Below, in pieces: positions 13,245 through 59,588 of a stretch of 64,000 nt of DNA. Location of the stretch: contig NZ_PQHW01000017.1 in the NCBI RefSeq assembly GCF_003385215.1, positions 1 to 64,000 on the forward strand. Reading direction: 5' to 3'. Below the pieces are notes generated by a model. It did no database searches. It saw nothing but the letters and a program-made list of their open reading frames with translations, and was not told the origin of the DNA. The first letter of the stretch is position 1, and each line of letters opens with the position of its first letter. The position numbers and the translations under genes are program-made. This stretch comes from Amycolatopsis thermalba (GTDB lineage Bacteria; Actinomycetota; Actinomycetes; Mycobacteriales; Pseudonocardiaceae).

Positions 13245-14536
13245 ACCAGGTTCTGATCAAGGGCGCCCGGCTCTACGGCGAGGGCGACCCGGCCGACGTC
13301 CTGGTCGCGAACGGCACCATCAGTCGGATAGACACAGCGATCGGGTCCGTTTCCGAGGACGCCGAGGTGATCGAGGCGGACGGCCAGGTCCTGCTGCCCG
13401 GCTTCGTCGACCTGCACACCCACCTGCGCGAACCCGGCCGCGAGGACACCGAGACCATCGAGACCGGCTCGGCCGCGGCCGCGCTCGGCGGCTACACCGC
13501 GGTCTTCGCGATGGCCAACACCGACCCGGTCGCCGACAACGCGGTGATCGTCGAGCACGTGTGGCGCCGCGGCCGCGAGGTAGGCCTGGTCGACGTGCAC
13601 CCGGTCGGCGCCGTGACCGTCGGCCTGCGGGGGGAGCGGCTGGCCGAGCTGGGCACGATGGCGAAGTCCGCCGCCGGGGTCCGGGTCTTCTCCGACGACG
13701 GCCACTGCGTGCACGACCCGCTCATCATGCGCCGCGCCCTGGAGTACTCCACCGCGCTGGACGTGGTCATCGCGCAGCACGCCGAGGAGCCGCGGCTGAC
13801 CGTCGGCGCGCAGGCCCACGAGGGCGCGCAGGCCTCGCGCCTGGGCTACGCGGGCTGGCCCGCCTCGGCCGAGGAGTCGATCGTCGCGCGTGACTGCCTG
13901 CTCGCCGAGCACGCCGGCGCCCGCCTGCACGTCTGCCACGTCTCCACGAGTGGCACCGCCGACGTGCTGCGCTGGGCGAAAGACCGCGGTACCCGGGTGT
14001 CCGCCGAGGTCACGCCGCACCACCTGCTGCTCACCGACGAGCGCCTGGCCACCTACGACCCGGTGAACAAGGTCAACCCGCCGCTGCGCACCGACGCCGA
14101 CGTCGAGAAGCTGCGCGCCGCGCTGGCCGAGGGCGTCATCGACTGCGTCGCCACCGACCACGCCCCGCACGCGCCGCAGGACAAGGACTGCGAGTGGTCG
14201 GCGGCCCGCCCCGGCATGCTCGGCCTGCAGACGGCGCTGTCCGTGGTCGCCGCCACCATGGTGGAGACCGGCCTGCTGGACTGGCGCGGCGTGGCGAAGG
14301 TCATGAGCGAGCGCCCCGCGGAGATCGCCGGCCTGCCTGACCAGGGACGACCGCTCGCCGTGGGCGAACCCGCCAACCTCGCGCTGGTCGACCCGGGCGC
14401 ACAATGGACCGTGCGGGGGGCGGAGCTGGCCAGCCTCGCCGCCAACACCCCGTACGAGGGAATGCGGTTGCCCGCCGTGGTGACCGCGACGCTGCTGCGC
14501 GGGCGCGTGACCGCCCGCGAAGGGAAGATCTGCTGA
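13241..14536 (+). CDS. pyrC: Dihydroorotase
   Basis: PyrC cyclises carbamoyl aspartate to dihydroorotate using zinc. The 431-residue type I enzyme shows the metal motif [16 protein letters not shown], the [15 protein letters not shown] strand with a metal-binding histidine, and [14 protein letters not shown] with the catalytic aspartate. The start is GTG overlapping the pyrB stop. It shares one base with the next gene (TGATG). Confidence 0.97.
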
Positions 14537-15042: not shown

Positions 15043-19483
<4,441 letters not shown>

Positions 19484-34909: not shown

Positions 34910-35340
34910 GCACCCCCACCGGATCGAACGCGGAACTCGCGCGCCCGAGCGCGGAACTCGCGCGCCTGAGCGCAGAACTCGCCGGGGTGGGCGAGTTCCA
35001 CGCTCGGGACGGTGAGTTCTGCGTTGGGGACGGTGAGTTCTTCGTTCGGGAGCGTGAACTTCACCAGCGGCCCCGGTTCAGAAAGCGTCAGGTCCACGAC
35101 CACCGGCCGCCCAGGACTGAGCGCCCCCGCCGGAGCGAGCGCAGAACTCGCGCGCCCGAGCGTGGGACTCGCGCGCCCGAGCGTGGGACTCGCGCACCCG
35201 AGCGTGGGACTCGCGCGCGTGAGCGTGGGACTCGCCGGGCGGCGGCGAGTTCCACGCTCGGGACACCGAGTTCTGCGTTCGGGTGCGTGAAACCCACCGG
35301 CGGCCCGCGCTCAGACCGTCAGGTCCACCACCACCGGCGC
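34894..35340. repeat. Tandem duplication of a convergent intergenic region, with inverted ~21-bp arrays
   Basis: The segment from the end of the PH gene (34894) through the intergenic repeats to the end of xthA is present twice. GGCCGCCCAGGACTGAGC occurs at 34894 and 35105. The xthA 3'-end sequence GTCAGGTCCAC occurs at 35087 and, as the true gene end, at 35318. Each copy holds left-type and right-type ~21-bp units around a hairpin centre: 34968-34983 with 34990-35005, and 35221-35236 with 35244-35259 (one mismatch). Confidence 0.85.
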
Positions 35341-37744: not shown

Positions 37745-39688
37745 GTGGCTGACCCGTCCACCTACCGTCCCTCGCCGGGGAGCATCCCGGACGAGCCCGG
37801 CGTCTACAAGTTCCGCGACGCGACCAAGCGGGTCATCTACGTCGGCAAGGCCAAGAGCCTGCGCAGCCGGCTGAACTCCTACTTCGCCGACCTGTCCGGG
37901 CTGCACCCGCGCACCCGGCAGATGGTGACCACCGCGGCCGGCGTCGAATGGACCGTCGTCACCACCGAGGTCGAGGCGCTCCAGCTGGAGTACAACTGGA
38001 TCAAGGAGTTCGACCCGCGGTTCAACGTCCGCTACCGCGACGACAAGTCCTACCCGGTGCTGGCGGTGACGCTGCACGAGGAGTTCCCGCGGCTGCACGT
38101 CTACCGCGGCCCGCGCAAGAAGGGCGTGCGGTACTTCGGCCCGTACGCCCACGCCTGGGCGATCCGCGAGACGCTCGACCTGCTGCTGCGCGTGTTCCCA
38201 GCCCGCACGTGCTCCACCGGCGTGTTCCGCCGCCACGGCCAGATCGGCCGCCCGTGCCTGCTCGGCTACATCGACAAGTGCTCCGCGCCGTGCGTGGGCA
38301 AGGTCAGCGCCGACGAGCACCGGCGGATCGTCGAGGACTTCTGCGACTTCCTCTCCGGCAAGACCGACGCGATGGTGCGCAAGCTGGAGCGGGACATGGC
38401 CGAGGCCGCCGAGAACCTGGAGTTCGAGAAGGCCGCCCGGCTGCGCGACGACATCGGCGCGCTGCGTCGGGCCATGGAGAAGCAGGCCGTGGTGCTCGGC
38501 GACGGCACGGACGCCGACCTGGTCGCGTTCGCCCACGACGAGCTGGAGGCCGCGGTCCAGGTCTTCCACGTGCGCGGCGGGCGGGTCCGCGGCCAGCGCG
38601 GCTGGGTGATCGACAAGGCCGACGAGATGGGCGTGGCCGGCCTGGTCGAGCAGTTCCTCACCCAGTTCTACGGCGAGCAGGTCGAGCTGGCCGAGCAGGG
38701 CACCGACCTGGGCACGCCGGTGCCGCGCGAGGTGCTGGTGCCGGAACTGCCCGCCGATCCCGAGGCGATGACCGAGTGGCTGTCCGGGCTGCGCGGCTCC
38801 CGGGTGCAGCTGCGGGTGCCGCAGCGCGGCGACAAGCGCGCGCTGGCCGAGACCGTGCAGCGCAACGCCGAGGAGGCGTTCCAGCAGCACAAGCTGCGCC
38901 GCGCCGGCGACCTCACGGCCCGTTCGGCCGCGCTGGCGGAGCTGCAGGAGCACCTGGGCCTGGACAGCGCGCCGCTGCGCATCGAGTGCGTCGACATCAG
39001 CCACACGCAGGGCACCGACGTGGTCGCCTCGCTCGTGGTGTTCGAGGACGGTGTGGCGCGCAAGTCGGAGTACCGCCGGTTCGCGTTGCGGGAGGCCGCC
39101 ACCGAGGGGGATGTCGCCTCCATTGCCGAGGTGGTGCGGCGGCGGTTCGCTCGCTACCAGACCGAAACGCAGGAGGGCCTGGCCGGCGAGAAGCCGGGGA
39201 TCGACCCGGAGACCGGACGGCCGCGCAAGTTCGCCTACCCGCCGAACCTGCTCGTGGTCGACGGCGCGGGCCCGCAGGCGACGGCGGCGGCGGACGTGCT
39301 GGCGGAGATGGGCATCACCGACATCGCCGTGGTGGGCCTGGCGAAGCGGCTGGAGGAGGTGTGGCTGCCCGGTGACCCGGACCCGGTGATCCTGCCGCGC
39401 ACCTCCGAGGCGCTGTACCTGTTGCAGCGGGTGCGGGACGAGGCGCACCGGTTCGCCATCGCCTACCACCGGCAGAAGCGCGCCAAGCGCGTGCAGGTGT
39501 CCGCTTTGGACGGTGTGCCGGGGCTGGGGCAGGCGCGGCGGGCCGCGTTGATCAAGCACTTCGGGTCGGTGAAGCGGCTGAAGGAAGCAGGGGTGGACGA
39601 GATCGCGCAGGTGCCGGGCGTGGGGAAGCGCACCGCCGAAGCGATCTTCGCCGCGTTGGCCTCAGGTGGGGAGTCGGAGCGGAAGTGA
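37745..39688 (+). CDS. uvrC: Excinuclease ABC subunit C
   Basis: UvrC makes both incisions in nucleotide excision repair. The 647-residue protein has the N-terminal GIY-YIG nuclease domain ([20 protein letters not shown]), the UVR motif around [18 protein letters not shown], the RNase H-like domain ([20 protein letters not shown]) and C-terminal helix-hairpin-helix motifs ([19 protein letters not shown]). It overlaps rapZ by GTGA. The order uvrC-rapZ-yvcK-whiA is conserved in actinobacteria. Confidence 0.97.
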
Positions 39689-40581
39689 CGGGAGAGACGA
39701 TGGCCGAGGATCGCGGCACCGGCATGGAGGTGGCGGTGGTGACCGGGCTGTCCGGCGCCGGCCGCAGCACCGCCGCGAAGTGCCTGGAGGATCTGGGCTG
39801 GTTCGTGGTGGACAACCTGCCGCCCGAGCTGATCGCGACGATGGTCGAGCTGGGGGCGCAGGCCCGCGGCGCGATCACGAAGGTGGCCGTGGTGATGGAC
39901 GTGCGCTCGCGCGCGTTCACCGACGACCTGTCGTCGATCATCAAGGACCTCGACGCGCGGGGCTACAAGCCGCGGGTGCTGTTCCTGGAGGCCACCGACG
40001 CGGTGCTGGTGCGGCGGTTCGAGCAGGTGCGCCGCGGCCACCCGCTGCAGGGGGACGGCCGGCTGATCGACGGCATCACCGCCGAGCGCCAGATGCTCGC
40101 GCCGCTGCGCGAGGAGGCCGACCTGGTGCTGGAGACCTCCGCGCTGTCGGTGCACGACCTGCGCGCGAAGATCGAGGACGCGTTCGGCTCCGAATCGGCC
40201 ACGCAGACGCGGGTCACCGTGCTGTCGTTCGGCTACAAGTACGGCCTGCCGATGGACGCGGATCTGGTGATGGACGTGCGGTTCCTGCCCAACCCGTTCT
40301 GGATCCCCGAGCTGCGCGACCACACCGGCCTGGACGCCGAGGTGCGCAACTACGTGCTGTCGCAGGAGGGCGCCGAGGAGTTCCTGGACCGCTACCACCA
40401 GCTGCTGCGCCTGATCGGCGCCGGCTACCGGCGGGAGGGCAAGCGGTACCTGACACTGGCGGTGGGCTGCACCGGCGGGAAGCACCGGAGTGTCGCGATC
40501 TCCGAGGAGCTGTCCCGGCTGCTGTCCAATGAGGACGGTATGGCGGTGAAGGTCATCCACCGGGACCTGGGACGCGAGTGA
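39685..40581 (+). CDS. rapZ: RapZ/YvcJ-family nucleotide-binding protein
   Basis: RapZ proteins bind nucleotides and, in Escherichia coli, RNA to control amino-sugar synthesis; the actinobacterial role is less clear. The 298-residue protein has the P-loop [20 protein letters not shown] and the C-terminal [20 protein letters not shown] motif. GTG 39685 overlaps uvrC; ATG 39700, with GGGAGA upstream, is an equally good start. It overlaps yvcK by 4 nt. Confidence 0.93.
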
Positions 40582-41555
40582 CCGGGCCGTTGCGAGCCGT
40601 CGCGCTGGGCGGCGGCCACGGGCTGCACGCGACGCTGACCGCCCTGCGGCGGCTGACCCCGGACGTGACCGCGGTGGTCACGGTCGCCGACGACGGCGGC
40701 TCGTCCGGGCGGTTGCGGCGGGAGCTGGGCCTGCTGCCGCCGGGGGACCTGCGGCAGGCGTTGTCCGCGCTGGCGGTCGCCGAGAAGGGCGAGTCGTTGT
40801 GGGCGGAGGTGTTCCAGCACCGGTTCGGCGGCAGCGGCGCGCTCACCGGGCACGCGGTGGGCAACCTGGTGCTGGCCGGGTTGTTCGAGGTGCTGGGCGA
40901 TCCGGTGGCCGCGCTGGACGAGGCGCGCCGGCTGCTGGGCGTGTCCGGGCGGGTGCTGCCGATGTCGCCGGAGCCGCTGGAGATCGAGGCGGAAGTGTCC
41001 GGCCTCGACGACGACGGGTCGTTGCGCCGCATCCGTGGCCAGGTCGCGGTGGCGAGCACCCCGGGGCGGGTCGAGCGGATCACGCTGCGCACGCCGCGGC
41101 GGCCGGGCGGGGTGCCGGCGGCGTGCGACGAGGCGGTGCAGGCCGTGCTGGACGCCGAGGCGGTGTTCCTGGGGCCGGGTTCGTGGTTCACCAGCGTCAT
41201 CCCGCACCTGATGGTGCCCGCGCTGCACGACGCGCTGATGCGCACGGCGGCGACGAAGATCGTGGTCCTGAACCTCGTCCCTCAGCCGGGTGAGACGGCG
41301 GGGTTCTCACCCGAACGGCACCTGGACGTACTCTTCCAGCACGCGCCCGGGCTGCGGGTGGACGCGGTGATCGCCGACCGGGACTCGGTGCCGGCACCGG
41401 CCCGCCTGCGGGACGCGGCGGCGGGACTGGGGGCCACGGCGCTTCTGGCGGATGTGGCGGACCCTGGTCGCGAGGGTGTGCACGATCCGGATGCGCTGGC
41501 GAGCTGTGTGCGGGAAGCTCTCGGTCTCAGCGGGACCGAGGGCCGGAAAGGGTAG
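40578..41555 (+). CDS. yvcK: Gluconeogenesis factor YvcK/CuvA (CofD-like)
   Basis: YvcK-type proteins bind UDP-sugars and support growth on gluconeogenic carbon and cell-wall homeostasis. The 325-residue protein begins LRAVALGGGHGLHATLTALR and has VADDGGSSGRLRRELGLLPPGD and the HAVGNLVLAGL motif. The start overlaps rapZ (GTGA). whiA follows after 9 nt. Confidence 0.94.
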   Translation: MTGPLRAVALGGGHGLHATLTALRRLTPDVTAVVTVADDGGSSGRLRRELGLLPPGDLRQALSALAVAEKGESLWAEVFQHRFGGSGALTGHAVGNLVLAGLFEVLGDPVAALDEARRLLGVSGRVLPMSPEPLEIEAEVSGLDDDGSLRRIRGQVAVASTPGRVERITLRTPRRPGGVPAACDEAVQAVLDAEAVFLGPGSWFTSVIPHLMVPALHDALMRTAATKIVVLNLVPQPGETAGFSPERHLDVLFQHAPGLRVDAVIADRDSVPAPARLRDAAAGLGATALLADVADPGREGVHDPDALASCVREALGLSGTEGRKG

Positions 41556-41564
41556 GGAGGGGCC

Positions 41565-42551
41565 ATGGCGATGACCGCCGCCGTGAAGGACGAGCTCAGC
41601 AGGCTGCAGATCACGAAGATCGGGCCGCGCCGGTCCGAAGTCGCGTCGATGCTGCGCTTCGCCGGTGGCCTGCACATCGTGGGGGGACGGGTGGTGGTGG
41701 AGGCCGAGCTGGACACGGGTTCGGTCGCGCGGCGCCTGCGCAAGGAGATCCACGAGCTGTACGGCCACCATTCGGACGTGCACGTGTTGTCCGCGGGCGG
41801 GCTGCGGAAGACGACGAGGTACATCGTCCGGGTGGTTCAGGACGGGGAGAGCCTGGCCCGGCAGACGGGGTTGATCGACCAGCGGGGCCGCCCGGTGCGG
41901 GGCCTGCCGGCGGCGGTGGTGTCCGGCGGGATCGCCGACGCCGAGGCCGCGTGGCGGGGCGCGTTCCTGGCGCACGGTTCGCTGACCGAGCCGGGCCGGT
42001 CGTCGTCGCTGGAGGTCACGTGCCCCGGCCCGGAGGCGGCGCTGGCGCTGGTGGGGGCGGCGCGGCGGATGGGCATCCAGGCGAAGTCGCGTGAGGTGCG
42101 GGGAGCCGACCGGGTGGTGGTCCGGGACGGGGACGCCATCGGTGCGCTGCTGACCCGGCTGGGCGCCCACGCGAGCGTCCTGCAGTGGGAGGAGCGCCGG
42201 ATGCGCCGCGAGGTCCGCGCGACGGCGAACCGCCTGGCCAACTTCGACGACGCCAACCTGCGCCGGAGCGCCCGGGCGGCGGTCGCGGCGGCCGCCCGGG
42301 TGGAACGAGCGCTGGACATCCTGGCCGACACCGCACCCGAACACCTGCTCGCCGCCGGACGGTTGCGGCTGGAGAATCGTCAGGCATCCCTGGAGGAGCT
42401 GGGCCAGCTGGCCGACCCCCCGATGACGAAGGACGCGGTGGCCGGCCGGATCCGGAGATTGCTGGCGATGGCCGACAAGCGGGCGAAGGAACTGAACATC
42501 CCGGACACCGAAAGCGCCGTCACGCCGGAAATGCTCGAGGAGAGCGTCTAA
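41565..42551 (+). CDS. whiA: Sporulation regulator WhiA
   Basis: WhiA works with WhiB to start sporulation septation in Streptomyces; homologues occur in most Gram-positives. The 328-residue protein has an N-terminal LAGLIDADG-like domain (about 1-220, with [16 protein letters not shown]) and a C-terminal HTH ([31 protein letters not shown]). ATG 41565 has GGGAGGGG upstream. It is the last gene of the conserved block before the accessory region. Confidence 0.96.
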
Positions 42552-47652: not shown

Positions 47653-47653
47653 C

Positions 47654-47795
47654 ACGAACGTAGAACTCGCGCTCACGAACGTAGAACTCGCGCCCAGGAG
47701 CGCAGGACTCGCGCGGCGCCGGCGAGTCCCACGTTCAGGCGCGCGAGTTCCGCGCTCGGGTGCGCGAGTTCTGCGTTCGGGTGCGCGAACTCTGC
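47654..47795. repeat. Inverted array of ~21-bp repeats between convergent genes
   Basis: Left-type units with ACGTAGAACTCGCGC are followed by right-type units with GCGCGAGTTCYGCGYTCGG. The centre is a perfect 8-bp stem, 47705-47712 with 47722-47729. The array fills the whole gap between gpgS and the oxygenase gene and could act as a two-way terminator. Confidence 0.85.
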
Positions 47796-47797
47796 GC

Positions 47798-48499
47798 TCA
47801 GGTGGCGTCGTGGAACACCAGGCCCAGTGTGTGGCGGATGCCGGTGCGGACGGTGCTCACGCCGTGCCGCACCGGCGCCGCCGACCAGCCGCGGGACGAG
47901 CGCACCGGGCGGTCCCGGGTGGTGAAGATCAGCGCGTGACCCTGCGGCAGCTGGGTCACCGTGCCGCGGGACTGGGCCCGGGGCCGCTGCTCGACCAGCA
48001 GGAACTCGCCGCCGGTGTGGTCGGCGCCGGGCACGTCGAGCCCGATCACGACCTGCAGCGGGAACACCAGCTCCCCGTACAGGTCGCGGTGCAGCGCGTT
48101 CCAGTCGCCGGCCCGGTAGCGCAGCAGGATCGGCGTCGGCCGGATCTGGCCCGCGCGGTGGCACCGGTCGAGCCAGGTTTCCAGGTCGTCCGGCCACGGC
48201 GCGTCCCAGCCCAGCTTGGCCGCCCAGTCGCGGGCGATCGGCAGCAGGTGCGGGTAGAACGCCGCCTGGAGGCGGGCGACCGGCTCGGGCAGCGGGTAGC
48301 CGAAGTAGCGATACTGCCCGGACCCGAACCGGAAGCGCGCCATGTCGATCGTGGACCGGAACCGGCCCGCGTCGTCGTACAGCGCCGACAGCTCCCGGCA
48401 CTCGCGCGCGCTCAGGATCGGCGGCGTGAGGGCGCAGCCGGTGTCGTTCAGTTCTGCCGTGAGGGCGGGCCAGTCGAAGCCCGCGACGTCCGAGATCAC
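47798..48499 (-). CDS. 2-oxoglutarate/Fe(II) oxygenase (prolyl hydroxylase-like)
   Basis: The 233-residue protein has the double-stranded beta-helix pattern of Fe(II)/2-oxoglutarate dioxygenases. The HxD metal motif is in NALHRDLYGELVFPL, and a distal metal-His/Arg pair is likely in STVRTGIRHTLGLVFHD. I chose GTG 48499 with GGGCGGG upstream; longer frames add unconserved residues. The substrate is unknown. It lies 43 bp downstream of the F420-type oxidoreductase gene on the same strand. Confidence 0.75.
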   Translation of the reverse strand: MISDVAGFDWPALTAELNDTGCALTPPILSARECRELSALYDDAGRFRSTIDMARFRFGSGQYRYFGYPLPEPVARLQAAFYPHLLPIARDWAAKLGWDAPWPDDLETWLDRCHRAGQIRPTPILLRYRAGDWNALHRDLYGELVFPLQVVIGLDVPGADHTGGEFLLVEQRPRAQSRGTVTQLPQGHALIFTTRDRPVRSSRGWSAAPVRHGVSTVRTGIRHTLGLVFHDAT

Positions 48500-49490: not shown

Positions 49491-50963
49491 GTGCGTGACT
49501 CGGACCTGATCAGCGGGGGGCTGGTGGACGAGGGCCTGGCCCGGCGGCTCAAGGCGCTCGCCTGCACCGCGCCCCTGCACGACCTGGACGCGCGCAAGGC
49601 GAAACTGGACTGGGCCGACGCGACCGTCTACCAGATGGCCGAGATCGCGCTGCACACGATCGACCTGGTCACCATCGCGATGGACTTCGACACCGGCGCC
49701 AACCACGACGACGTCGTCCGGCGCCTGCAGCCGTTCATCGCCGCGCAGGCCCCGCGCCGCCCGGCCGAGGAGCACCTGCGCGTCGCCCGGTGGGTGCTGG
49801 ACAACCTGATCAACGTCGGCACCACCGACCGCGGCTTCCGCCGCGTCTACGGCAGCCTCGACGCGCACGGCACCTACCGGCGCCGCGCGTTCGACTTCAA
49901 GCTGCTCGTCGAGCTGGCCGCCCCGGACGGCGAGGTGTACCTGCGGGCCAGCGACGAGGCGATCAACGTGCTGGTCGGCGCGCTGGACACCGACGTCGAG
50001 TCCGCCCAGATCGCGGCCGAGGTCAAGCTGGAGAACCTGATCAGCCGCGGCCGCCTCGCCGGCGCCAAGCTCGCCGCCGAGCAGGCCCGCTACCGCACCG
50101 TCCAGTACGGCGAGACGCTGCGCGCCAAGCTGGACGCGACCCGCCGCGACGTGCGCGCGGTGGACTGGGACCGCGAGATGCCCGAGCTGCTGGACTCCGC
50201 GCTGACCCACATCGAGGCCCGCTTCCGCGCGGAGAACGCGATCCTGCGCAACATCACCGCCGCCCGCGACGAGGCCGAGGACGTCGACCACAAGCGCCGC
50301 GCCGCCGAGCTGGTCGACATCGTCAGCGACTGCATCAGCCGGCACACGCAGCTGCAGGCCCGGCTGCAGGCCGCCGGGGCGGTCTTCCGCGCCGAACAGG
50401 ACCGGCAGCAGTTCTCCGGCCCGCCGCAGCGCGCCACCGTCGACCTGTTCGGCCAGATCCTGATGCCCGCGCTGGAACTGCCGATCGCCGACGCCGTGTC
50501 GCCGCTGGAGTCGTACTTCCACGCCGCGGCCGGGCTGGTCGTGCCGACCGTGCCCGCGCTGCCGTCGCTGGTCTCGCTGCTGCTGCGGCCCGCGCCCGAG
50601 CGCGACAAGGTGGTCGGCGAGGTGCCCGAGCCGGAGCTCGTCCCGCCGGAGAGCCTCGACCACTACAGTGACGAGCAGTGGCGGCGGGCCGACGAGCTGC
50701 TGGACCTGCCGGAGGTGCCGCGGCGGCTGTCCGGCCTGCTGGCCGAGGCCCGCGAGCTCGACCCGCAGCTGCCGCGCCTGGTGGCGCTGCGGGCGCTGCA
50801 CTCCTACAGTCCCGAGGTGGGCGCCGCCGTCCGGCAGGGGGACGATCGCGCGCTGCTCGCCGTCGACGACGGCACGCTGCTGGAGGACACCGAGTTCGGT
50901 GGCGCCGACCTGCTGCTGAGCACGGCACGCCTGGAACGGGACGACGAAGAGGGGGCGGCATGA
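49491..50963 (+). CDS. JetA/MksF-like kleisin candidate of an SMC-like complex
   Basis: The 490-residue protein is mostly helical. Residues about 160-260 fit the pattern I associate with JetA/MksF-type subunits: YLRASDEAINVLVGALDTD, then a run with LISRGRLAGAKLAAEQA and ATRRDVRAVDWDREMPELL. In such complexes this subunit bridges the SMC heads. It is first of three genes (this gene, a tandem winged-helix protein, an SMC-like ATPase). Assignment rests on pattern memory and gene order, not on a database search. The 3' end (EGAA-stop) is copied 86 bp further on. Confidence 0.65.
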   Translation: MRDSDLISGGLVDEGLARRLKALACTAPLHDLDARKAKLDWADATVYQMAEIALHTIDLVTIAMDFDTGANHDDVVRRLQPFIAAQAPRRPAEEHLRVARWVLDNLINVGTTDRGFRRVYGSLDAHGTYRRRAFDFKLLVELAAPDGEVYLRASDEAINVLVGALDTDVESAQIAAEVKLENLISRGRLAGAKLAAEQARYRTVQYGETLRAKLDATRRDVRAVDWDREMPELLDSALTHIEARFRAENAILRNITAARDEAEDVDHKRRAAELVDIVSDCISRHTQLQARLQAAGAVFRAEQDRQQFSGPPQRATVDLFGQILMPALELPIADAVSPLESYFHAAAGLVVPTVPALPSLVSLLLRPAPERDKVVGEVPEPELVPPESLDHYSDEQWRRADELLDLPEVPRRLSGLLAEARELDPQLPRLVALRALHSYSPEVGAAVRQGDDRALLAVDDGTLLEDTEFGGADLLLSTARLERDDEEGAA

Positions 50964-51049
50964 GGACTGCTCGCAGGTCCGAATCATTCAGCGCCATGCC
51001 TGTCAAGGCATTGCCGCGGCTTGCCGCGTCCGTTGAGGGGGCGGCATGA
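50949..51049 (+). repeat. 15-bp direct repeats flanking an insert at the jetA-jetB junction
   Basis: GAGGGGGCGGCATGA occurs at 50949-50963 and 51035-51049. Each copy contains the overlapping ATGA stop/start. The intervening 71 bp contains three short hairpins: GGAC with GTCC, ATGCCT with AGGCAT, and CGCGGC with GCCGCG. Confidence 0.9.
50960..51049 (+). CDS. 29-aa mini-ORF linking jetA-like and jetB-like genes
   Basis: ATG 50960 overlaps the stop of the upstream gene (ATGA), and the frame ends at 51049 in another ATGA that opens the downstream gene. The peptide ends EGAA, like the upstream protein, because the junction is duplicated. It is basic and has no known domain. The ribosome-site-like GAGGGGGCGG precedes both starts. 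It may be a coupling relay or an insertion scar. Confidence 0.5.
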   Translation: MRTARRSESFSAMPVKALPRLAASVEGAA

Positions 51050-51846
51050 CGCGTCCGGTCACGACCGGGGATGCGGAGTCGGCGGCACGGCTGATCTCGT
51101 TCGGCATGCGGCCCAAGCACCTGCCCTCGCGCGACGTCGTCTACGCCGACCTGGTCCGCCGCTACGGCGAGGACAGCGCGTTCAAGCAGCTGACCAACTC
51201 GGTCGCCGCGGGGCTGGGCCTGATGGTGCTCGACGTGAGCCACCAGGCCGGCGCGGTCCTGGCCGCCACCGACGAGTCGGTGTTCGAGGTCAAGATGGAC
51301 AGCTACGCGCGGCAGAGCAAGATCCGCGAGCGCCGCGACACCGAGAAGGTGCTGCACGGTCTCGTCCACCTCGCCACCGCCGCGCTCGGCTACCCGCGCC
51401 CCGACGACCTGGCCAACGACACCTACATCGGCCGGGTCAGCGTCGACCAGGTCGACGGCGTGGTGCGCGAGGCGTGCCGGCTCCTCGACGAGCGCGCCGC
51501 CAAGGCCGAGGCCAACAACGACCCGCTGTCCGACTCGCCGGAGCTGGAACAGGCCTGGCGCGCCTACGCCCGCCGTCCCGAGGCGGCGGCCACCAAGGAC
51601 GGCCGGCTGGCCTCGGACACCACGCGCGGCATGGTGTCCCGCGCCCTGCGGTTCCTGGCCGACCAGGGGTTCCTGGTGCAGGTGAGCGGCGAGCAGGGCG
51701 GCACCTACCGGACCACGCCGCGGTACCAGGTGCAGGTGCGGGAACTGGCCGCGGACAGCGCGTTCGAGGAGCTGCTGGCCCTCGGCGTGGTCGCGGTCTC
51801 CGACGGCGGGGGCACGCTGCGCCCGTCCATTTCGGACACTCTGTAG
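51046..51846 (+). CDS. JetB/MksE-like tandem winged-helix subunit candidate
   Basis: The 266-residue protein has an alpha/beta winged-helix look. It includes VYADLVRRYGEDSAFKQLTN, a basic surface segment and the C-terminal RALRFLADQGFLVQ followed by GTYRTTPRYQVQVRELA, like KITE/MksE/MukE subunits that bind the kleisin. ATG 51046 overlaps the mini-ORF stop. The SMC-like gene follows after 10 bp with GGGGGAG as ribosome site. The function is inferred from operon position and fold pattern. Confidence 0.6.
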   Translation: MTRPVTTGDAESAARLISFGMRPKHLPSRDVVYADLVRRYGEDSAFKQLTNSVAAGLGLMVLDVSHQAGAVLAATDESVFEVKMDSYARQSKIRERRDTEKVLHGLVHLATAALGYPRPDDLANDTYIGRVSVDQVDGVVREACRLLDERAAKAEANNDPLSDSPELEQAWRAYARRPEAAATKDGRLASDTTRGMVSRALRFLADQGFLVQVSGEQGGTYRTTPRYQVQVRELAADSAFEELLALGVVAVSDGGGTLRPSISDTL

Positions 51847-51856
51847 GGGGAGATCG

Positions 51857-54800
51857 GTGTACGAGCTTGCGCGGGTGCGCCTGCACTCCGTCGGACCGGC
51901 GGGCGCGCGCTACCAGAACGTGCTGCTGGACTTCAGCGGCGTCGGCCCGCTGGTCAAGGCCCCGGCGCAGGACGCGTTGTTCACCGCCGGGATCCACTCC
52001 GCCGACGGGAGCCTGCCGCGGCGGCCGTCCCCGGCGAGCGTGCTGTTCCTGGAGAACGGCGGCGGCAAGTCCGTGCTGATCAAGCTGATCTTCTCGGTCA
52101 TGCTGCCCGGCCGCCGCCAGGTGGTGGGCACGACCAGCACGCGCGTGCTGGAGAAGTTCGTGATGGCCAAGGACGTCGCGCACGTCGTCCTGGAGTGGCA
52201 GCACACCGAGACCGGGCAGCGGGTGATCACCGGCAAGGTGTCGGAGTGGCGCGGGCACGTCGTGTCCAACGACCCGGCGAACCTGGTCGACTCGTGGTAC
52301 TGCTTCCGGCCCACCGCCGCGCTGGGGCTGGAGTCGCTGCCGTTCACCGAGGACGCCCGCCTGCTGACCATGTCCGGGTTCGCCGAGCAGCTGGAGCGCG
52401 CGCACAAGGCCGAGCCCGAGCTGGAGCTGTTCACCACCCGCCGCCACCACGAGTGGACCGAGCGGCTGGACACCCTCGGCCTGGACACCGAGCTGTTCCG
52501 CTACCAGCGCGCGATGAACGCCGGCGAGGGTGAGGCGGCCGACGCGTTCGCCTTCACCTCCGACGAGGCGTTCGTGGAGTTCCTGCTGCGCGCGGTGATC
52601 CCCGAGGACGACCCGAAGGACCTGGCCGAGGTCGTGCAGACCTACGCGCACAACCTCGGGCAGCGCGGCGAGCTGATGTCCGAACGCGACTTCGTGGCCG
52701 GGGCGCTGGACCTGCTGACGCCGCTCACCGAGGAGGAGTCCCTCGCCGCCGCGTCCCGCAAGCTCGCCGCGGTCGCGCGCGAGGAGGCCCGCGCGCTGGC
52801 CGGATCCGTCATCGCCCGGCACGAGCTGGAGGCCGAGCGCCTCGACGGGCTGAAGTCCTATGTGGACGAAACGCGGGACGCGGAGAAGCTGGCCGAAGGC
52901 GACCACCGGCGCCGCAACGCCGTCGTCACCGAGCTGCGCCGCGTGGTCGCGGAGATGCGGCTGGCCGACGCGACCGCGGAGAAGGCGCGGATCGACGAGG
53001 AGCTGGCGAAGGCGCGCGAGGCCGCGGCCGCGTGGCGCGAGACCGGCACGGTGCTGGCCCACGTCAACGCCGCGCGCAAGGCGACCGGCATCCGCAAGCT
53101 CGTCGGCGACCGCGAGCAGAGCGCGAAACCGGCCCTGGAGGCCAAGAACGCCGCGGCCACCGCGCTCGCCCGGGGGCTGCTGGCGCTGGCGCGGGAAGCC
53201 GAGGAGCAGGCGCAGGCCGCGGAAGCCCGCGCCGAGATCGCCCGCCGCGCCGCCGCGGCCGCGCAGAACCAGCGCGACGAGGCGACCGCGACCGCCGCCG
53301 GCCACCGCGCCGAGCTGGGGCAGCTGACCCGCCGCATCGAGGAGGTGCGCGCACAGGTGCAGCAGGCCGTCCGCGACGGGCTGCTCACCGACGGCACCCA
53401 GGTCGCCGCCGCGGCCCAGGAAGCCCGCACCCGCGGCGAGAACGCGATCACGGAGCTGGCCGCGCGGGAGAGCGAGCTGGAGGGTGTCGCCGAGGACCAC
53501 GCCCAGGCCCAGGCCGCCCTGCACGCCGCGCAGCAGCGGGCCGCGACCGCGCAGTCCCGGGCGGCGCACGCGGCGGAGGAGCTGGCCAAGGCGCACCGGC
53601 GCGCGGACAGCCTCGCCGCGCACCCGCGGCTGCTGGAGCTGCTCGGCGGCGACAACGTCCAGCTGGAGACCGACACCCCCGCCCTGCTGACCCGGCTGCG
53701 TGAAGCCCGCGCCGCCGCCGAGCGCGAGCAGACCGCGCTGCGCATGGAGGAATCGGCCGACGAACGGGCGCTGGCCGCGCTCGGATCCGGTGGCCTGCTG
53801 CCCGCGCCGCCCGAGGTCCAGTCCGCGTTGGACGTGCTGGAGGCCGCGGGGATCACCGCGTGGTCGGGCTGGCGGTATCTGTCCACGATGGACGCCGCAG
53901 GCCGGGAACGGGTGCTGCGGGACCTGCCGCACCTGCTCGGCGGGGTGCTGATCAACGACCCGGCCCAGCTGGACCGCGCCCGCCAGGTGCTCGCCGACGC
54001 CAAGCTGCTGCCGAGCGTGGTGCTGCCGGTCGGCACCACCCAGGCCGTGCGGGCGTCAGGTGCGGCGCCCGGCGTGGACTTCCTGGTCCCGCCCAACCCC
54101 GCGATGTACGACGAGGAGGCGGCCGACACCGAGCGGCAGGCCATCGCCGCGCGGCACGCCCGCCGCCAGAAGCAGCTCGAAGCGCTGGCCGGCGCGATCG
54201 GCGACGACGCGGCGCTGGAGTGGAAGCTCACCACCTGGCGCGAGGACTACCCGGCGGGCGCGCTGGCCACCCTCGCCGAGGAGGCCGAGGCCGCGGCCAC
54301 CGAGCAGACCGAGGCCGAAGCCGCCGTGGCCGCGCAGGAGCGCGCGGTGACGGACCTGGCCGCGCGCCGGGCCCGGCTGCGGGACGCGATCCCGGCCCTG
54401 CGCGCCGAAGCACGCGGCAGCGAGGACCGCGCCCGCAAGCTGGCCGAGCTGGCCGAGCGGGTCGCCCTCATTCCACAGTGGACCGAGACCGTCGAGCGGG
54501 CGCAGGAGATCGTCACCCGCGCCGAGGCCGAGGCGGAGCAGGCGGCTTCGCGCGCGGCGCGGCTGCGTGAGGAGGCCGCCGAGGAGCAGCGCACCGCCGA
54601 CGGCCACCGCCGCACGGTCACCCACGCGCGCGCCGAGCGGACCGAGGTGCCGGGCGGGGGATCGGTGTCCGAGGACGACCCGGTGCCGACCGAACCGGTC
54701 GACGCGCTGCGCCGCGCGTTCGCCGCGGCCAGCGACGCCTACGCCCGCGTCGAGGTGGGCAGCGACCTGCGGGCCGAGCTGGACCAGGCGGAGAACGCGG

Positions 54801-56299
54801 AGTCGGCGGCGCGGGCGGCGCTGGAGGCGCTGGAGCCGGCGGTGCGGGAACAGGCGGCGCGCCTGCTGGAAACCCCGGACGGCTCCGACGCCGCGACCCG
54901 CGCCGCCGCCCTGGCGCGGGCCGGGCGGACCGTGTCCGCGCTGGAGGCCGAGCACAGCGAGGCGATCGGGCTGGTCGCGACCTGCAAGGCCGAGCTGGAC
55001 CAGCTGCCGAAGCAGAACGCGTCGCTGGAGGTCCGGCCGCGCGACGTCGAGCACGGCCGGGAACTGATCGACGAAGCCGGCGAGGAGGCATCGGCGGCGG
55101 CCCGCGCCCTGGAGGAGGCGCAGGCGCGGCGCGCGGAGGCCGAGCGCACGCTGGAGGCGGCCACCGCGTCGGCGGCCGGGTTCCGGATGCTCGCCGAGTC
55201 GATGGCGCACCTGGCCCCCGAGGGCGAGCCGGAGAGCGTGTTCGACGGCGACGTGGAGGCCGCGCAGGCCCGCTACCGCAAGCTGAACACGGCGCTGACC
55301 GACGCCGAGGCGGCGGTGGATGCCGCGGAGAAGCGGGTGCGGGCGGCCGCGGACGCGCTGGCCCAGTACGCCACCGACAAGCGGTTCGAGAAGCTGGCCA
55401 GCCCGGTGCGGCAGCAGATCGTGTCGGTGCGCCGGGACAGCCTGCCGTCGCACGCGCGGGAGTGGTCGGCCGCGCTGAAGCCGCGGCTGCGCACGCTGAC
55501 CGACGACCTGGCGCAGATCGACCGGCACCGGTCCGGGATCGTGGCGCGGCTGCAGGGCATGGTCGAGGGCGCGCTGCGGATGCTGCGGTCGGCGCAGCGG
55601 CTGTCGCGGCTGCCGGAGGGGCTCGGCGGCTGGTCCGGGCAGGAGTTCCTGCGGATCCGATTCGGCGATCCGGAGGAGCCGCAGCTGTCCGAGGCGCTCG
55701 GGCAGGTCGTCGACGAGGCGGCGCTCGGCCGGACCAGCGACGGCCGCGACGTGAAGCGGGACGGGATGTCGCTGGTGCTGCGCGGCGTGCGGGCGGCGGT
55801 GCCCAAGGGGTTCCGGGTGGACATCCTCAAGCCGGATTCGGTGCTGCGCACGGAACGCCAGCGGGTGTCGGAGATCCGGGACGTGTTCTCCGGCGGGCAG
55901 CAGCTCACGGCGGCGATCATCCTGTACTGCACGCTGGCGGCGCTGCGGGCGAACAACCGCGGCATGGTGCGCAACCGGCATTCCGGGGTGCTGTTCCTGG
56001 ACAACCCGATCGGCCGCGCGTCGGCCGGGTACCTGCTGGAGCTGCAGCGGGTCGTCGCGGAGGCGCTCGGGGTGCAGCTGATCTACACGACGGGCCTGTT
56101 CGACGCCGGCGCGCTGTCGGAGTTCCCGCTGATCGTGCGCCTGCGCAACGACGCGGACCTGCGCGCGGGCCGCAAGTACCTGTCGGTCGACGCCACGATC
56201 CGCAACCACCTGGACGACCTGGCCGACCCGGACGGCACGGCCCGCATCTCGGCGACCCGGCTGTTCACCAAGCCGGGGGAGCAGGCGGAAAGCGCCTGA
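51857..56299 (+). CDS. JetC/MksB-like SMC-family ATPase
   Basis: The 1480-residue protein has SMC layout: an N-terminal ATPase half with Walker A FLENGGGKSVLIKLIF (about residues 67-82), long Ala/Glu/Arg-rich coiled coils, and a globular insert at about 650-760 (GWRYLSTMDAAGRERVLRDL onward). A second coiled coil follows, then the C-terminal half with the ABC signature FSGGQQLTAAI (about 1343) and Walker B VLFLDNPIGRASAGYLL (about 1378). Such proteins extrude DNA loops in MukBEF, MksBEF and Wadjet. No JetD/MksG-type nuclease gene follows. The start is GTG with GGGGGAG 5 nt upstream. Confidence 0.8.
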   Translation: MYELARVRLHSVGPAGARYQNVLLDFSGVGPLVKAPAQDALFTAGIHSADGSLPRRPSPASVLFLENGGGKSVLIKLIFSVMLPGRRQVVGTTSTRVLEKFVMAKDVAHVVLEWQHTETGQRVITGKVSEWRGHVVSNDPANLVDSWYCFRPTAALGLESLPFTEDARLLTMSGFAEQLERAHKAEPELELFTTRRHHEWTERLDTLGLDTELFRYQRAMNAGEGEAADAFAFTSDEAFVEFLLRAVIPEDDPKDLAEVVQTYAHNLGQRGELMSERDFVAGALDLLTPLTEEESLAAASRKLAAVAREEARALAGSVIARHELEAERLDGLKSYVDETRDAEKLAEGDHRRRNAVVTELRRVVAEMRLADATAEKARIDEELAKAREAAAAWRETGTVLAHVNAARKATGIRKLVGDREQSAKPALEAKNAAATALARGLLALAREAEEQAQAAEARAEIARRAAAAAQNQRDEATATAAGHRAELGQLTRRIEEVRAQVQQAVRDGLLTDGTQVAAAAQEARTRGENAITELAARESELEGVAEDHAQAQAALHAAQQRAATAQSRAAHAAEELAKAHRRADSLAAHPRLLELLGGDNVQLETDTPALLTRLREARAAAEREQTALRMEESADERALAALGSGGLLPAPPEVQSALDVLEAAGITAWSGWRYLSTMDAAGRERVLRDLPHLLGGVLINDPAQLDRARQVLADAKLLPSVVLPVGTTQAVRASGAAPGVDFLVPPNPAMYDEEAADTERQAIAARHARRQKQLEALAGAIGDDAALEWKLTTWREDYPAGALATLAEEAEAAATEQTEAEAAVAAQERAVTDLAARRARLRDAIPALRAEARGSEDRARKLAELAERVALIPQWTETVERAQEIVTRAEAEAEQAASRAARLREEAAEEQRTADGHRRTVTHARAERTEVPGGGSVSEDDPVPTEPVDALRRAFAAASDAYARVEVGSDLRAELDQAENAESAARAALEALEPAVREQAARLLETPDGSDAATRAAALARAGRTVSALEAEHSEAIGLVATCKAELDQLPKQNASLEVRPRDVEHGRELIDEAGEEASAAARALEEAQARRAEAERTLEAATASAAGFRMLAESMAHLAPEGEPESVFDGDVEAAQARYRKLNTALTDAEAAVDAAEKRVRAAADALAQYATDKRFEKLASPVRQQIVSVRRDSLPSHAREWSAALKPRLRTLTDDLAQIDRHRSGIVARLQGMVEGALRMLRSAQRLSRLPEGLGGWSGQEFLRIRFGDPEEPQLSEALGQVVDEAALGRTSDGRDVKRDGMSLVLRGVRAAVPKGFRVDILKPDSVLRTERQRVSEIRDVFSGGQQLTAAIILYCTLAALRANNRGMVRNRHSGVLFLDNPIGRASAGYLLELQRVVAEALGVQLIYTTGLFDAGALSEFPLIVRLRNDADLRAGRKYLSVDATIRNHLDDLADPDGTARISATRLFTKPGEQAESA

Positions 56300-56307
56300 A
56301 CCCCCAG

Positions 56308-56412
56308 CCGCGAGTCCCACGCTCCGGCGCGCGAGTCCCACACTCCGGCGCGCGAGTCCCACGCTCGGCCGCGTGAGTTCCGCGTTCCCGTGCGCGAGTT
56401 CCGCGTTCGCCC
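56308..56412. repeat. One-sided array of ~21-bp repeats
   Basis: Right-type units GCGCGAGTCCCACGCTCCG and variants occur five times in one orientation, just after the SMC-like gene. Unlike the other arrays there are no left-type units. Confidence 0.8.
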
Positions 56413-56472
56413 GTGTGGTTCGCGCTTCCGGCGGCCGCCGTTCCGGCCGGCGAGCACCGGCCGGTCCGGCGG

Positions 56473-58421: not shown

Positions 58422-59588
58422 GTGAACAGAAAACTGGGGAACGACCAGCGCCGCGCTCGTCTGGTGACGCGGCACCACCTCGCGGCGCCCGCCGACGGAC
58501 CGGACCAGGTTGCCGAGAGCCTGGTCGTGCTGCACGCGACCGATCCGGCCACCGTCCACCTCTCGGTGCTGGCCCGCTCGGCGGCGAGCACCGCCGACGT
58601 CGAGCGGGCCCTTTACGACGAGCGCACCCTGGTGCGGATGCTCGGCATGCGCCGCACGATGTTCGTCGTCCCGCGAGCGCTCGTGCCGGTCGTCCAGGCC
58701 GCCTGCGCCGACGACATCGCCACCCGCGAGCGCAAGCACCTGATCAAGCACCTGGCCACGGCCGGCCTCGACACCGACCTCGACGCCTGGCTCGCCGAAG
58801 TCGAGGAGGGCGCTCACGCCGCGCTCCGGGCCCGCGAACCGGCGTACGCCCAGCAGGTCGCGGACGGCGAACCCCGCCTGCGGACCGAGATCGTCCTGGC
58901 CGCGGGCAAGCCGTACGAGTCCCGCACCTACATCACCAACCGCGTCCTGTTCCTGCTCGCCGCGTCCGGCCGGATCGTCCGCGGCCGTCCCCGCGGCACC
59001 TGGGTGTCCACCCAGTACGCCTGGTCCACCACGGAAACCTGGCTGCCCGTGCTGGAACCGGTGGACGCCGAGACCGCCCGGGTGGAACTGGCCCGCCGCT
59101 GGCTGCGCGCCTTCGGCCCGGCCCCGGTCGCCGATCTGAAGTGGTGGACCGGCTGGACCGCCGGGCAGGTGAAGAAGGCACTGGCCGCGATCGGTCCGGT
59201 GGACGTGGACCTCGACGACGGCCCGGGCGTCGCGCTCCCCGGCGACGACGAGCCCGTCGACCACCCCGAGCCCGTCGCCGCGCTGCTGCCCGCCCTCGAC
59301 CCGACCCCGATGGGCTGGCAGGAGCGCGGCTGGTTTCTCGGCGAGCACCGGGCACAGCTGTTCGACCGCACCGGCAACATCGGCCCGACCGTGTGGTGGG
59401 ACGGCCGGATCGTCGGCGGGTGGGCCCAGCGCCCGGACGGGGAGATCGCGATCCGCCTGCTGGAGGACATCGGCGCCGACGGAACAGCGGCCGTCGACGC
59501 CGCCGCCGAACGGTTGCACGGCCGTCTCGGCGGGGTCGCGGTCATACCGAAATTCCGCACGCCCGTCGAGCGAGATCTGTCATCTTGA
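58422..59588 (+). CDS. Winged-helix (HTH_42/AlkZ-like) DNA-binding protein
   Basis: The 388-residue protein resembles the YcaQ/AlkZ superfamily, some members of which are DNA glycosylases that unhook cross-links or give self-resistance to alkylating natural products. The N-terminus (RARLVTRHHLAAPADGPDQV), the LHATDPATVHLSVLARS segment, GMRRTMFVV and the C-terminal PALDPTPMGWQERGWFLG are typical. I could not identify the catalytic QxQ or QxD motif with confidence, so the enzyme role is open. Confidence 0.7.
   Translation: MNRKLGNDQRRARLVTRHHLAAPADGPDQVAESLVVLHATDPATVHLSVLARSAASTADVERALYDERTLVRMLGMRRTMFVVPRALVPVVQAACADDIATRERKHLIKHLATAGLDTDLDAWLAEVEEGAHAALRAREPAYAQQVADGEPRLRTEIVLAAGKPYESRTYITNRVLFLLAASGRIVRGRPRGTWVSTQYAWSTTETWLPVLEPVDAETARVELARRWLRAFGPAPVADLKWWTGWTAGQVKKALAAIGPVDVDLDDGPGVALPGDDEPVDHPEPVAALLPALDPTPMGWQERGWFLGEHRAQLFDRTGNIGPTVWWDGRIVGGWAQRPDGEIAIRLLEDIGADGTAAVDAAAERLHGRLGGVAVIPKFRTPVERDLSS

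What the first reader, a model, noticed from the sequence alone, without database searches (positions are those of the whole stretch)
49491..56299. Three-gene SMC-like operon resembling JetABC/MksFEB without the nuclease subunit
Seen: three tightly linked genes encoding a helical 490-aa protein, a 266-aa winged-helix protein, and a 1480-aa SMC-type ATPase with ENGGGKS, SGGQ and FLDNP motifs. Known: MukBEF, MksBEF and Wadjet share this kleisin/KITE/SMC layout, and Wadjet needs the Toprim-like nuclease JetD to cut plasmids. No JetD/MksG candidate lies between the MarR gene upstream and the ArsR/LysE genes downstream. Inference: this is either a chromosome-organising condensin or a defence complex that recruits a nuclease encoded elsewhere. 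The globular middle of the ATPase (about residues 650-760) does not look like a standard SMC hinge to me.
Basis: partly seen in the sequence, partly recalled or inferred. Interest (0 to 1): 0.75.

Follow-up and report, generated by a model that had tools for sequence, protein, structure and literature searches.

The report
Plasmid-defence machine without its cutter
A three-gene DNA-looping machine related to a bacterial anti-plasmid system lacks its DNA-cutting part and sits at one fixed chromosomal place in the Amycolatopsis-type bacteria examined, which suggests a defence system turned into an everyday chromosome organiser.

Summary
The three genes are real. JetA (49491-50963) and JetC (51857-56299) match PADLOC's type III Wadjet models full length (694 and 1948 bits); JetB is supported mainly by position. 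No JetD lies beside them and no type III JetD was found in the genome. The one JetD found belongs to a complete, separate type I operon. The operon sits between whiA and gap-pgk-tpi. In the JetC tree, 64 of the 71 rows of its clade show whiA or gap nearby, and 7 of 8 chosen genomes without JetC3 have whiA beside gap. JetC3 occurs in 19 of 19 genomes of the window's genus and all 80 identified of another genus; a JetD3 was seen beside this copy in 1 of the 99. The genes are under purifying selection. One Amycolatopsis has a JetD directly behind jetC, probably regained. A relative at another locus lacks a JetD that its sister has. Best reading: a nuclease-free SMC complex of type III Wadjet descent, working like MksBEF as a second condensin beside Smc. 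Anatomy is well supported; function is inferred. New variant of a known kind.

The parts
49491..50963 (+). jetA (type III Wadjet JetA3, kleisin-like by family), 490 aa, GTG start
   Evidence: PADLOC PDLC00567 JetA3, 694.5 bits, residues 10-487; dN/dS 0.07-0.09 against A. deserti and A. tucumanensis
50964..51045 (+). 82-base insert between jetA and jetB with repeated flanks; absent from A. deserti (L003)
   Evidence: sequence comparison by eye and blastn; a second copy at 74% identity on contig C157
51046..51846 (+). jetB (KITE-like subunit, JetB3 by position), 266 aa
   Evidence: weak PADLOC JetB3 hit E 0.023; a homologue lies beside jetC in the loci listed; low-confidence model whose top PDB rows come from MukEF, JetABC and ScpAB entries
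51857..56299 (+). jetC (type III Wadjet SMC-like ATPase, JetC3), 1480 aa
   Evidence: PADLOC PDLC00588, 1948 bits, residues 1-1478; motifs conserved
53564..54391 (+). middle of JetC, residues 570-845: coiled-coil stalk with compact hinge-like insert
   Evidence: AlphaFold2 mean pLDDT 80, pTM 0.55, insert lower; Foldseek and VIA rows
56000..56005 (+). JetC Walker B Asp1382-Asn1383 (Asp-Glu in the own type I JetC)
   Evidence: DN in 115 of 115 rows with letters there
41565..42551 (+). whiA, left chromosomal border of the slot (behind uvrC-rapZ-yvcK, 37745-41555)
   Evidence: NCBIfam TIGR00647, TIGR01826, NF003828, NF001824
59690..62773 (+). gap, pgk, tpi: right chromosomal border of the slot
   Evidence: NCBIfam TIGR01534, NF010569, TIGR00419

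Best explanation
The operon encodes a JetABC complex of type III Wadjet ancestry that lacks the JetD nuclease and is kept as a fixed chromosomal SMC-like complex. Shown here: three-gene operon, JetA3/JetC3 membership, no JetD3 found, fixed place between whiA and gap, presence in all identified genomes of two genera, purifying selection, intact ATP-binding motifs. Inferred: JetC dimers with JetA and JetB bind and extrude DNA loops, as type I Wadjet is modelled to do. Without JetD, completing a small circle causes no cut, so the complex acts on the chromosome (and perhaps on plasmids) as a second, MksBEF-like condensin beside the canonical Smc. JetD can be lost, and apparently regained, as a separate module behind jetC.
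For: Profiles. JetD absent nearby and, for type III, genome-wide. Own JetD is type I in its own complete operon. JetC3 in 19 of 19 and 80 of 80 identified genomes of two genera, against 180 of 390 in the family and 39 of 397 in an even draw of the order. JetD3 seen beside this copy in 1 of 99 (G217 not assessable, contig end). 64 of 71 clade rows show whiA or gap and none outside does; six of the other seven come from stretches under 7.5 kb. Empty site in 7 of 8 chosen genomes without JetC3. dN/dS of JetA/B/C 0.05-0.11 against A. deserti and A. tucumanensis, lower than most of the seven neighbours tested. 31 of 45 tree rows outside the clade carry JetD, so JetD is probably ancestral. Canonical SMC also present. 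In 72,556 plasmid records no place covers 80% of JetC. Precedent: P. [quoted passage not shown]
Against: No function was measured. Two members of the slot clade carry a JetD with conserved Toprim residues (L036, L155), so the complex may still work with one. L155's place is unresolved: in an open fork in one tree, nested at SH-aLRT 88-91 in the other, and in that second tree the fork holding the slot rows and three rows from elsewhere is also open, so the number and direction of JetD events is uncertain. 14 of 45 rows outside the clade also lack JetD, so JetD absence is not special to this slot. JetB shows no obvious loss of its N-terminal region. JetB and hinge folds are not established. Walker B carries Asn where ABC ATPases have the catalytic Glu (role of that Glu recalled). 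An AlkZ-like DNA glycosylase lies downstream (58422-59588), matched in 50 of 112 loci, a DNA-acting neighbour whose link was not tested.
Confidence: 0.6

Rival explanations
1. Nuclease-free plasmid interference: the complex still acts on small circular DNA but compacts or silences it instead of cutting it.
For: Relatives with JetD are type III Wadjet by profile; conserved ATPase motifs and JetB N-terminus.
Against: Presence in every identified genome of two genera at one chromosomal place is unusual for a defence gene; JetD3 is patchy in the same genera (22 of 99 genomes, some matches partial).
Confidence: 0.2
2. Wadjet in trans: JetABC uses a JetD encoded elsewhere (here the type I JetD).
For: The own genome does encode one JetD.
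Against: That JetD matches JetD1 models (323 bits) with no JetD3 model listed at E<=0.01, and sits in its own complete operon; in 12 of 19 genomes of the genus neither JetD profile finds one.
Confidence: 0.08
3. Defence complex with an unrelated, unrecognised effector.
For: Not excluded; unrecognised genes were not tested one by one, and an AlkZ-like DNA glycosylase lies 2.1 kb downstream.
Against: Neighbours with a family are a MarR, an F420-dependent PPOX, ArsR, LysE and the AlkZ-like glycosylase; none is constant: matched in 5, 56, 18, 38 and 50 of 112 loci, though stretches differ in length.
Confidence: 0.08
4. Decaying remnant of a Wadjet system.
For: JetD is missing.
Against: Intact frames, dN/dS 0.05-0.11 against two close relatives, conserved motifs.
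Confidence: 0.04

Closest known systems
Wadjet type III (JetA3, JetB3, JetC3, JetD3)
   Same: JetA and JetC match full length; gene order A-B-C; many other lineages carry JetD directly behind jetC
   Different: no JetD3 in operon or genome; fixed core chromosomal place
MksBEF of Pseudomonas aeruginosa (condensin)
   Same: three-subunit SMC complex next to a canonical SMC; [quoted passage not shown]
   Different: this one matches type III Wadjet models and no MukB-like model in Pfam or NCBIfam; function untested
MksBEFG of Corynebacterium glutamicum
   Same: actinobacterial Wadjet relative (PMC10123090, search listing and start of abstract seen)
   Different: has the MksG nuclease; called type I in a passage of PMC12287153
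Own type I Wadjet, G000 contig 1 (L055 5190-12190)
   Same: SMC-based, same genome
   Different: complete JetA1B1C1D1, Walker B Asp-Glu

Membership tests
Wadjet type III | JetC3 SMC-like ATPase | tested here: met
   PDLC00588 1948 bits over residues 1-1478
Wadjet type III | JetA3 | tested here: met
   PDLC00567 694.5 bits over residues 10-487
Wadjet type III | JetB3 | tested here: inconclusive
   E 0.023, 11.8 bits; position and cross-species conservation fit
Wadjet type III | JetD3 nuclease | tested here: not met
   none in the genome at E<=1e-6; none in window 40-64 kb
Wadjet type III | restricts plasmids | not testable with these tools
   needs an experiment
MksBEF/MukBEF condensins | kleisin + KITE + SMC operon without nuclease | tested here: inconclusive
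   layout fits; kleisin and KITE folds not established
MksBEF/MukBEF condensins | sequence match to MukB/MksB families | tested here: inconclusive
   no Pfam family at E<=1, only sub-threshold NCBIfam hits; the libraries may hold no MksB model
SMC proteins | hinge domain between coiled coils | tested here: inconclusive
   top Foldseek rows include 4rsi, 4rsj, 3ibp, none E<0.001; VIA Z 10.1-10.4 to four MukBEF entries over 226-249 residues at rmsd 7-9, tied with unrelated coiled coils
SMC/ABC ATPases | Walker A, signature, Walker B Asp | tested here: met
SMC/ABC ATPases | catalytic Glu after the Walker B Asp (recalled) | tested here: not met
   Asn in 115 of 115 JetC rows with letters there

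The most novel reading that the evidence does not exclude
A type III Wadjet was domesticated, independently of the Muk/Mks lineage, into a nuclease-free, core chromosomal second condensin in Pseudonocardiaceae, and JetD behaves as a detachable module that can be dropped or grafted back behind jetC, so defence and chromosome organisation interconvert.
Probability: 0.5. Interest if true: 0.78.

Novelty: new variant of a known kind. Interest (0 to 1): 0.62.

Why it matters
A review proposes that MukBEF and MksBEF have a history as defence systems, and that MksBEF likely lost the nuclease (PMC10586767, section 7 and passages), but that is an ancient event. Here what looks like the same transition is visible among living relatives: JetD present at other loci, JetD present and absent at the same chromosomal place, an apparently regained JetD, and a recent absence next to a JetD-bearing sister. 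That would make the hypothesis testable in culturable actinomycetes.

Tried and rejected
Pfam gave nothing and NCBIfam nothing above its cut-offs for the three proteins. Sequence searches of solved structures found no credible relative of JetC, JetB or JetA (best E 0.46, 0.59, 0.19). Profile comparison of JetB3 with the own type I JetB gave no match (thin alignment). The JetB model is low confidence (mean pLDDT 57); Foldseek has chains from MukEF, JetABC and ScpAB/ScpB entries at 10 of the first 16 rows, none with E<0.05, and VIA's best is an E. coli JetABC chain at Z 3.9, rmsd 4.3, 67 residues, so a KITE fold is suggested, not shown. Hinge rows in VIA are tied with unrelated coiled coils; the first row, a type II Wadjet JetABC chain, covers only 87 residues.

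I first read L155 as the basal, JetD-retaining member of the slot clade; the second tree does not support that, so I do not claim it. Pure loss without regain needs 14 losses in the slot clade against 2 changes by Fitch counting on the FastTree, and 7 against 2 on the 32-row tree. I prefer regain for L036 because homology to relatives stops about 60 bases before the jetC stop and resumes right after the JetD stop, and JetD GC is 66% against 74% for jetC. Loss of a JetD-docking element in JetB was looked for by eye and not seen. PADLOC's JetD3 model was used because Pfam JetD_C matched several type III JetDs only near its cut-off. Not examined: whether JetC in G253 and G257, which appear only in part, is broken; G217's copy is cut by a contig end. 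One search lists only the first 20 genomes without a match, so a non-matching g16 genome with an older handle would not be visible; bounds the handle block.
Full report
Observation. The frames at 49491-50963, 51046-51846 and 51857-56299 are present as described. Pfam finds nothing at E<=1 in any of them and NCBIfam only weak sub-threshold matches, but PADLOC-DB identifies JetA3 (694 bits) and JetC3 (1948 bits) full length; the 266-aa protein has only a weak JetB3 match. It lies between jetA and jetC, as its homologues do in the relatives, so I treat it as JetB3 by position.

Where it lives. JetC is 97% identical to that of Amycolatopsis deserti and 96% to that of A. tucumanensis. The assembly is 7.2 Mb in 222 contigs, 98.5% complete. 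It holds a canonical SMC on another contig.

The nuclease. One JetD was found in the genome, with JetD_C and DUF3322 at the same place. It is the last gene of a complete JetA1-JetB1-JetC1-JetD1 operon on contig 1 (L055). No type III JetD was found genome-wide at E<=1e-6 (5 candidates scored). In the window's genus (19 genomes including this one) 7 have a JetD by one of two profiles (G000, G004, G006, G008, G009, G015, G018) and 12 do not. Five of the 12 are single-contig assemblies and one has two contigs.

Distribution. JetC3 is found in 180 of 390 genomes of the family and in 39 of 397 of an even draw of the order, 30 of the 39 in the same family. In the window's genus it is in 19 of 19. In another genus of the family (g16: handles G195-G272, bounded by G194 and G273 which are other genera, plus G033 and G071) it is in 80 of 80 identified. 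In 22 of these 99 genomes a JetD3 matches, some only in part. By the coordinates it adjoins the fixed copy in one, G236; its JetD is identical to that of the A. rifamycinica locus L036. G217 cannot be judged because its contig ends inside jetC. In the four of the window's own genus, JetD3 adjoins a second JetC elsewhere.

Place. The operon lies between uvrC-rapZ-yvcK-whiA and gap-pgk-tpi. In a JetC tree of 116 rows (FastTree) the window falls in a clade of 71 rows. 64 of the 116 rows show whiA or gap in the fetched stretch (the window is counted in by definition); all 64 are in that clade and none is outside. The seven clade rows that do not show it are five stretches of about 7.4 kb, one of 5.8 kb, and L193, which shows only three other window neighbours. 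In 7 of 8 genomes without JetC3, whiA lies within 1.5 kb of gap (the eighth did not show whiA in its stretch). So the operon, with other genes, fills a slot in an otherwise conserved core block.

JetD on the tree. Of 33 rows with JetD, 31 lie outside the 71-row clade; inside it are L155 (G036) and L036. Of the 45 outside rows 31 have JetD and 14 do not. The five named loci from outside Pseudonocardiaceae (Nocardiopsis, Actinoallomurus, a Streptosporangiaceae MAG) all have JetD behind jetC. Ancestral presence of JetD is thus likely, though the root is an assumption. A second tree (32 rows, JetA + JetB + JetC heads and hinge, IQ-TREE) leaves L155 nested with SH-aLRT 88-91 and does not firmly separate the slot rows from L138, L139 and L169, so whether L155 kept or regained JetD is open. 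On the FastTree, pure loss needs 14 events in the slot clade, free change 2. In L036 homology with A. vancoresmycina (L049) ends at 14408, about 60 bases before the jetC stop (14470), and resumes at 15495, just after the JetD stop; JetD GC is 66% against 74% for jetC, the largest such gap among the 33 loci listed. I read that as regain; it is not proof. JetD of L036 and L155 group with those of L138, L139, L141 and L109 (SH-aLRT 97, where the tool warns of long branches) and keep the conserved acidic residues.

A further absence. L176 (G362) and L156 (G361) are sisters sharing flanking genes; L156 has JetD, L176 does not, with homology breaking in the jetC tail and resuming past the JetD gene. 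Nine other sampled loci of the same genus (g5: L175, L177-L184) also show no JetD. So JetABC persists without JetD more than once.

Constraint. dN/dS of JetA, JetB and JetC against A. deserti and A. tucumanensis is 0.05-0.11, against 0.08-0.23 for gap; with three more distant relatives it is 0.09-0.35 (ratios at higher dS are rough). Among the 83 JetC rows without JetD the Walker A string recurs in 81 and the signature string in 80; JetD-bearing rows are more varied. Walker B is Asp-Asn in 115 of 115 rows with letters there, with or without JetD, while the type I JetC of this genome has Asp-Glu. From general knowledge the Glu is the catalytic residue of ABC ATPases; how type III hydrolyses ATP is unknown to me. 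A search for JetC, Walker B, asparagine and Wadjet listed 3 papers, none with 'asparagine'.

Structure. JetC 570-845 is predicted as a stalk with a compact insert (mean pLDDT 80, insert lower). Foldseek's top rows include the Smc2-Smc4 hinge, the P. furiosus Smc hinge and the MukB dimerisation domain, none significant. It may be a reduced hinge; this is inconclusive. JetB's model is poor.

Mechanism. Type I Wadjet cleaves small circular DNA, modelled as loop extrusion to completion followed by JetD cleavage (PMC10586767, passages and section 7). Take away JetD and a loop extruder would remain. P. aeruginosa MksBEF is described as a condensin that organises and segregates the chromosome (PMC7485682 abstract). 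Fixed place, presence throughout two genera, purifying selection and no detected JetD in most of the genus make a chromosomal role the best reading. That step is inference.

Print. Searches for Wadjet with Amycolatopsis (1 paper, listing seen, a Rhodococcus genome paper), for JetABC with loss or lack of JetD (10 papers), for Wadjet with type III and JetD (12), for MksBEF, MksG and Wadjet (11) and for MukBEF/MksBEF/Wadjet evolution (8) showed nothing in their listings on nuclease-free type III complexes. PMC10586767 notes that most work concerns type I. The library holds open-licence papers only, so this is no proof that it is unpublished.

Noticed in passing
window 50964-51045: 82-base insert between jetA and jetB whose ends repeat the jetA stop/jetB start junction; similar in G003, G013 and G017 (92-96%), absent in A. 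deserti (L003); a diverged second copy on contig C157. Looks like a small mobile or repetitive element.
   Followed up: partly
window 47653-47804 and 56309-56433, also near 34925-35136: 21-base tandem repeats on both sides of the operon, one array directly behind the jetC stop; a strict pattern did not find them in ten relatives' loci or in L055 of the own genome.
   Followed up: partly
JetC residues 1382-1383 (window 56000-56005): Walker B is Asp-Asn in all 115 JetC rows with letters there, JetD or not, unlike the Asp-Glu of the own type I JetC.
   Followed up: partly
L055 5190-12190 (G000 contig 1): A complete type I Wadjet operon in the same genome.
   Followed up: yes
L176 against L156: JetD absent in one of two sister loci with shared flanks: looks like a natural JetD deletion.
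   Followed up: yes
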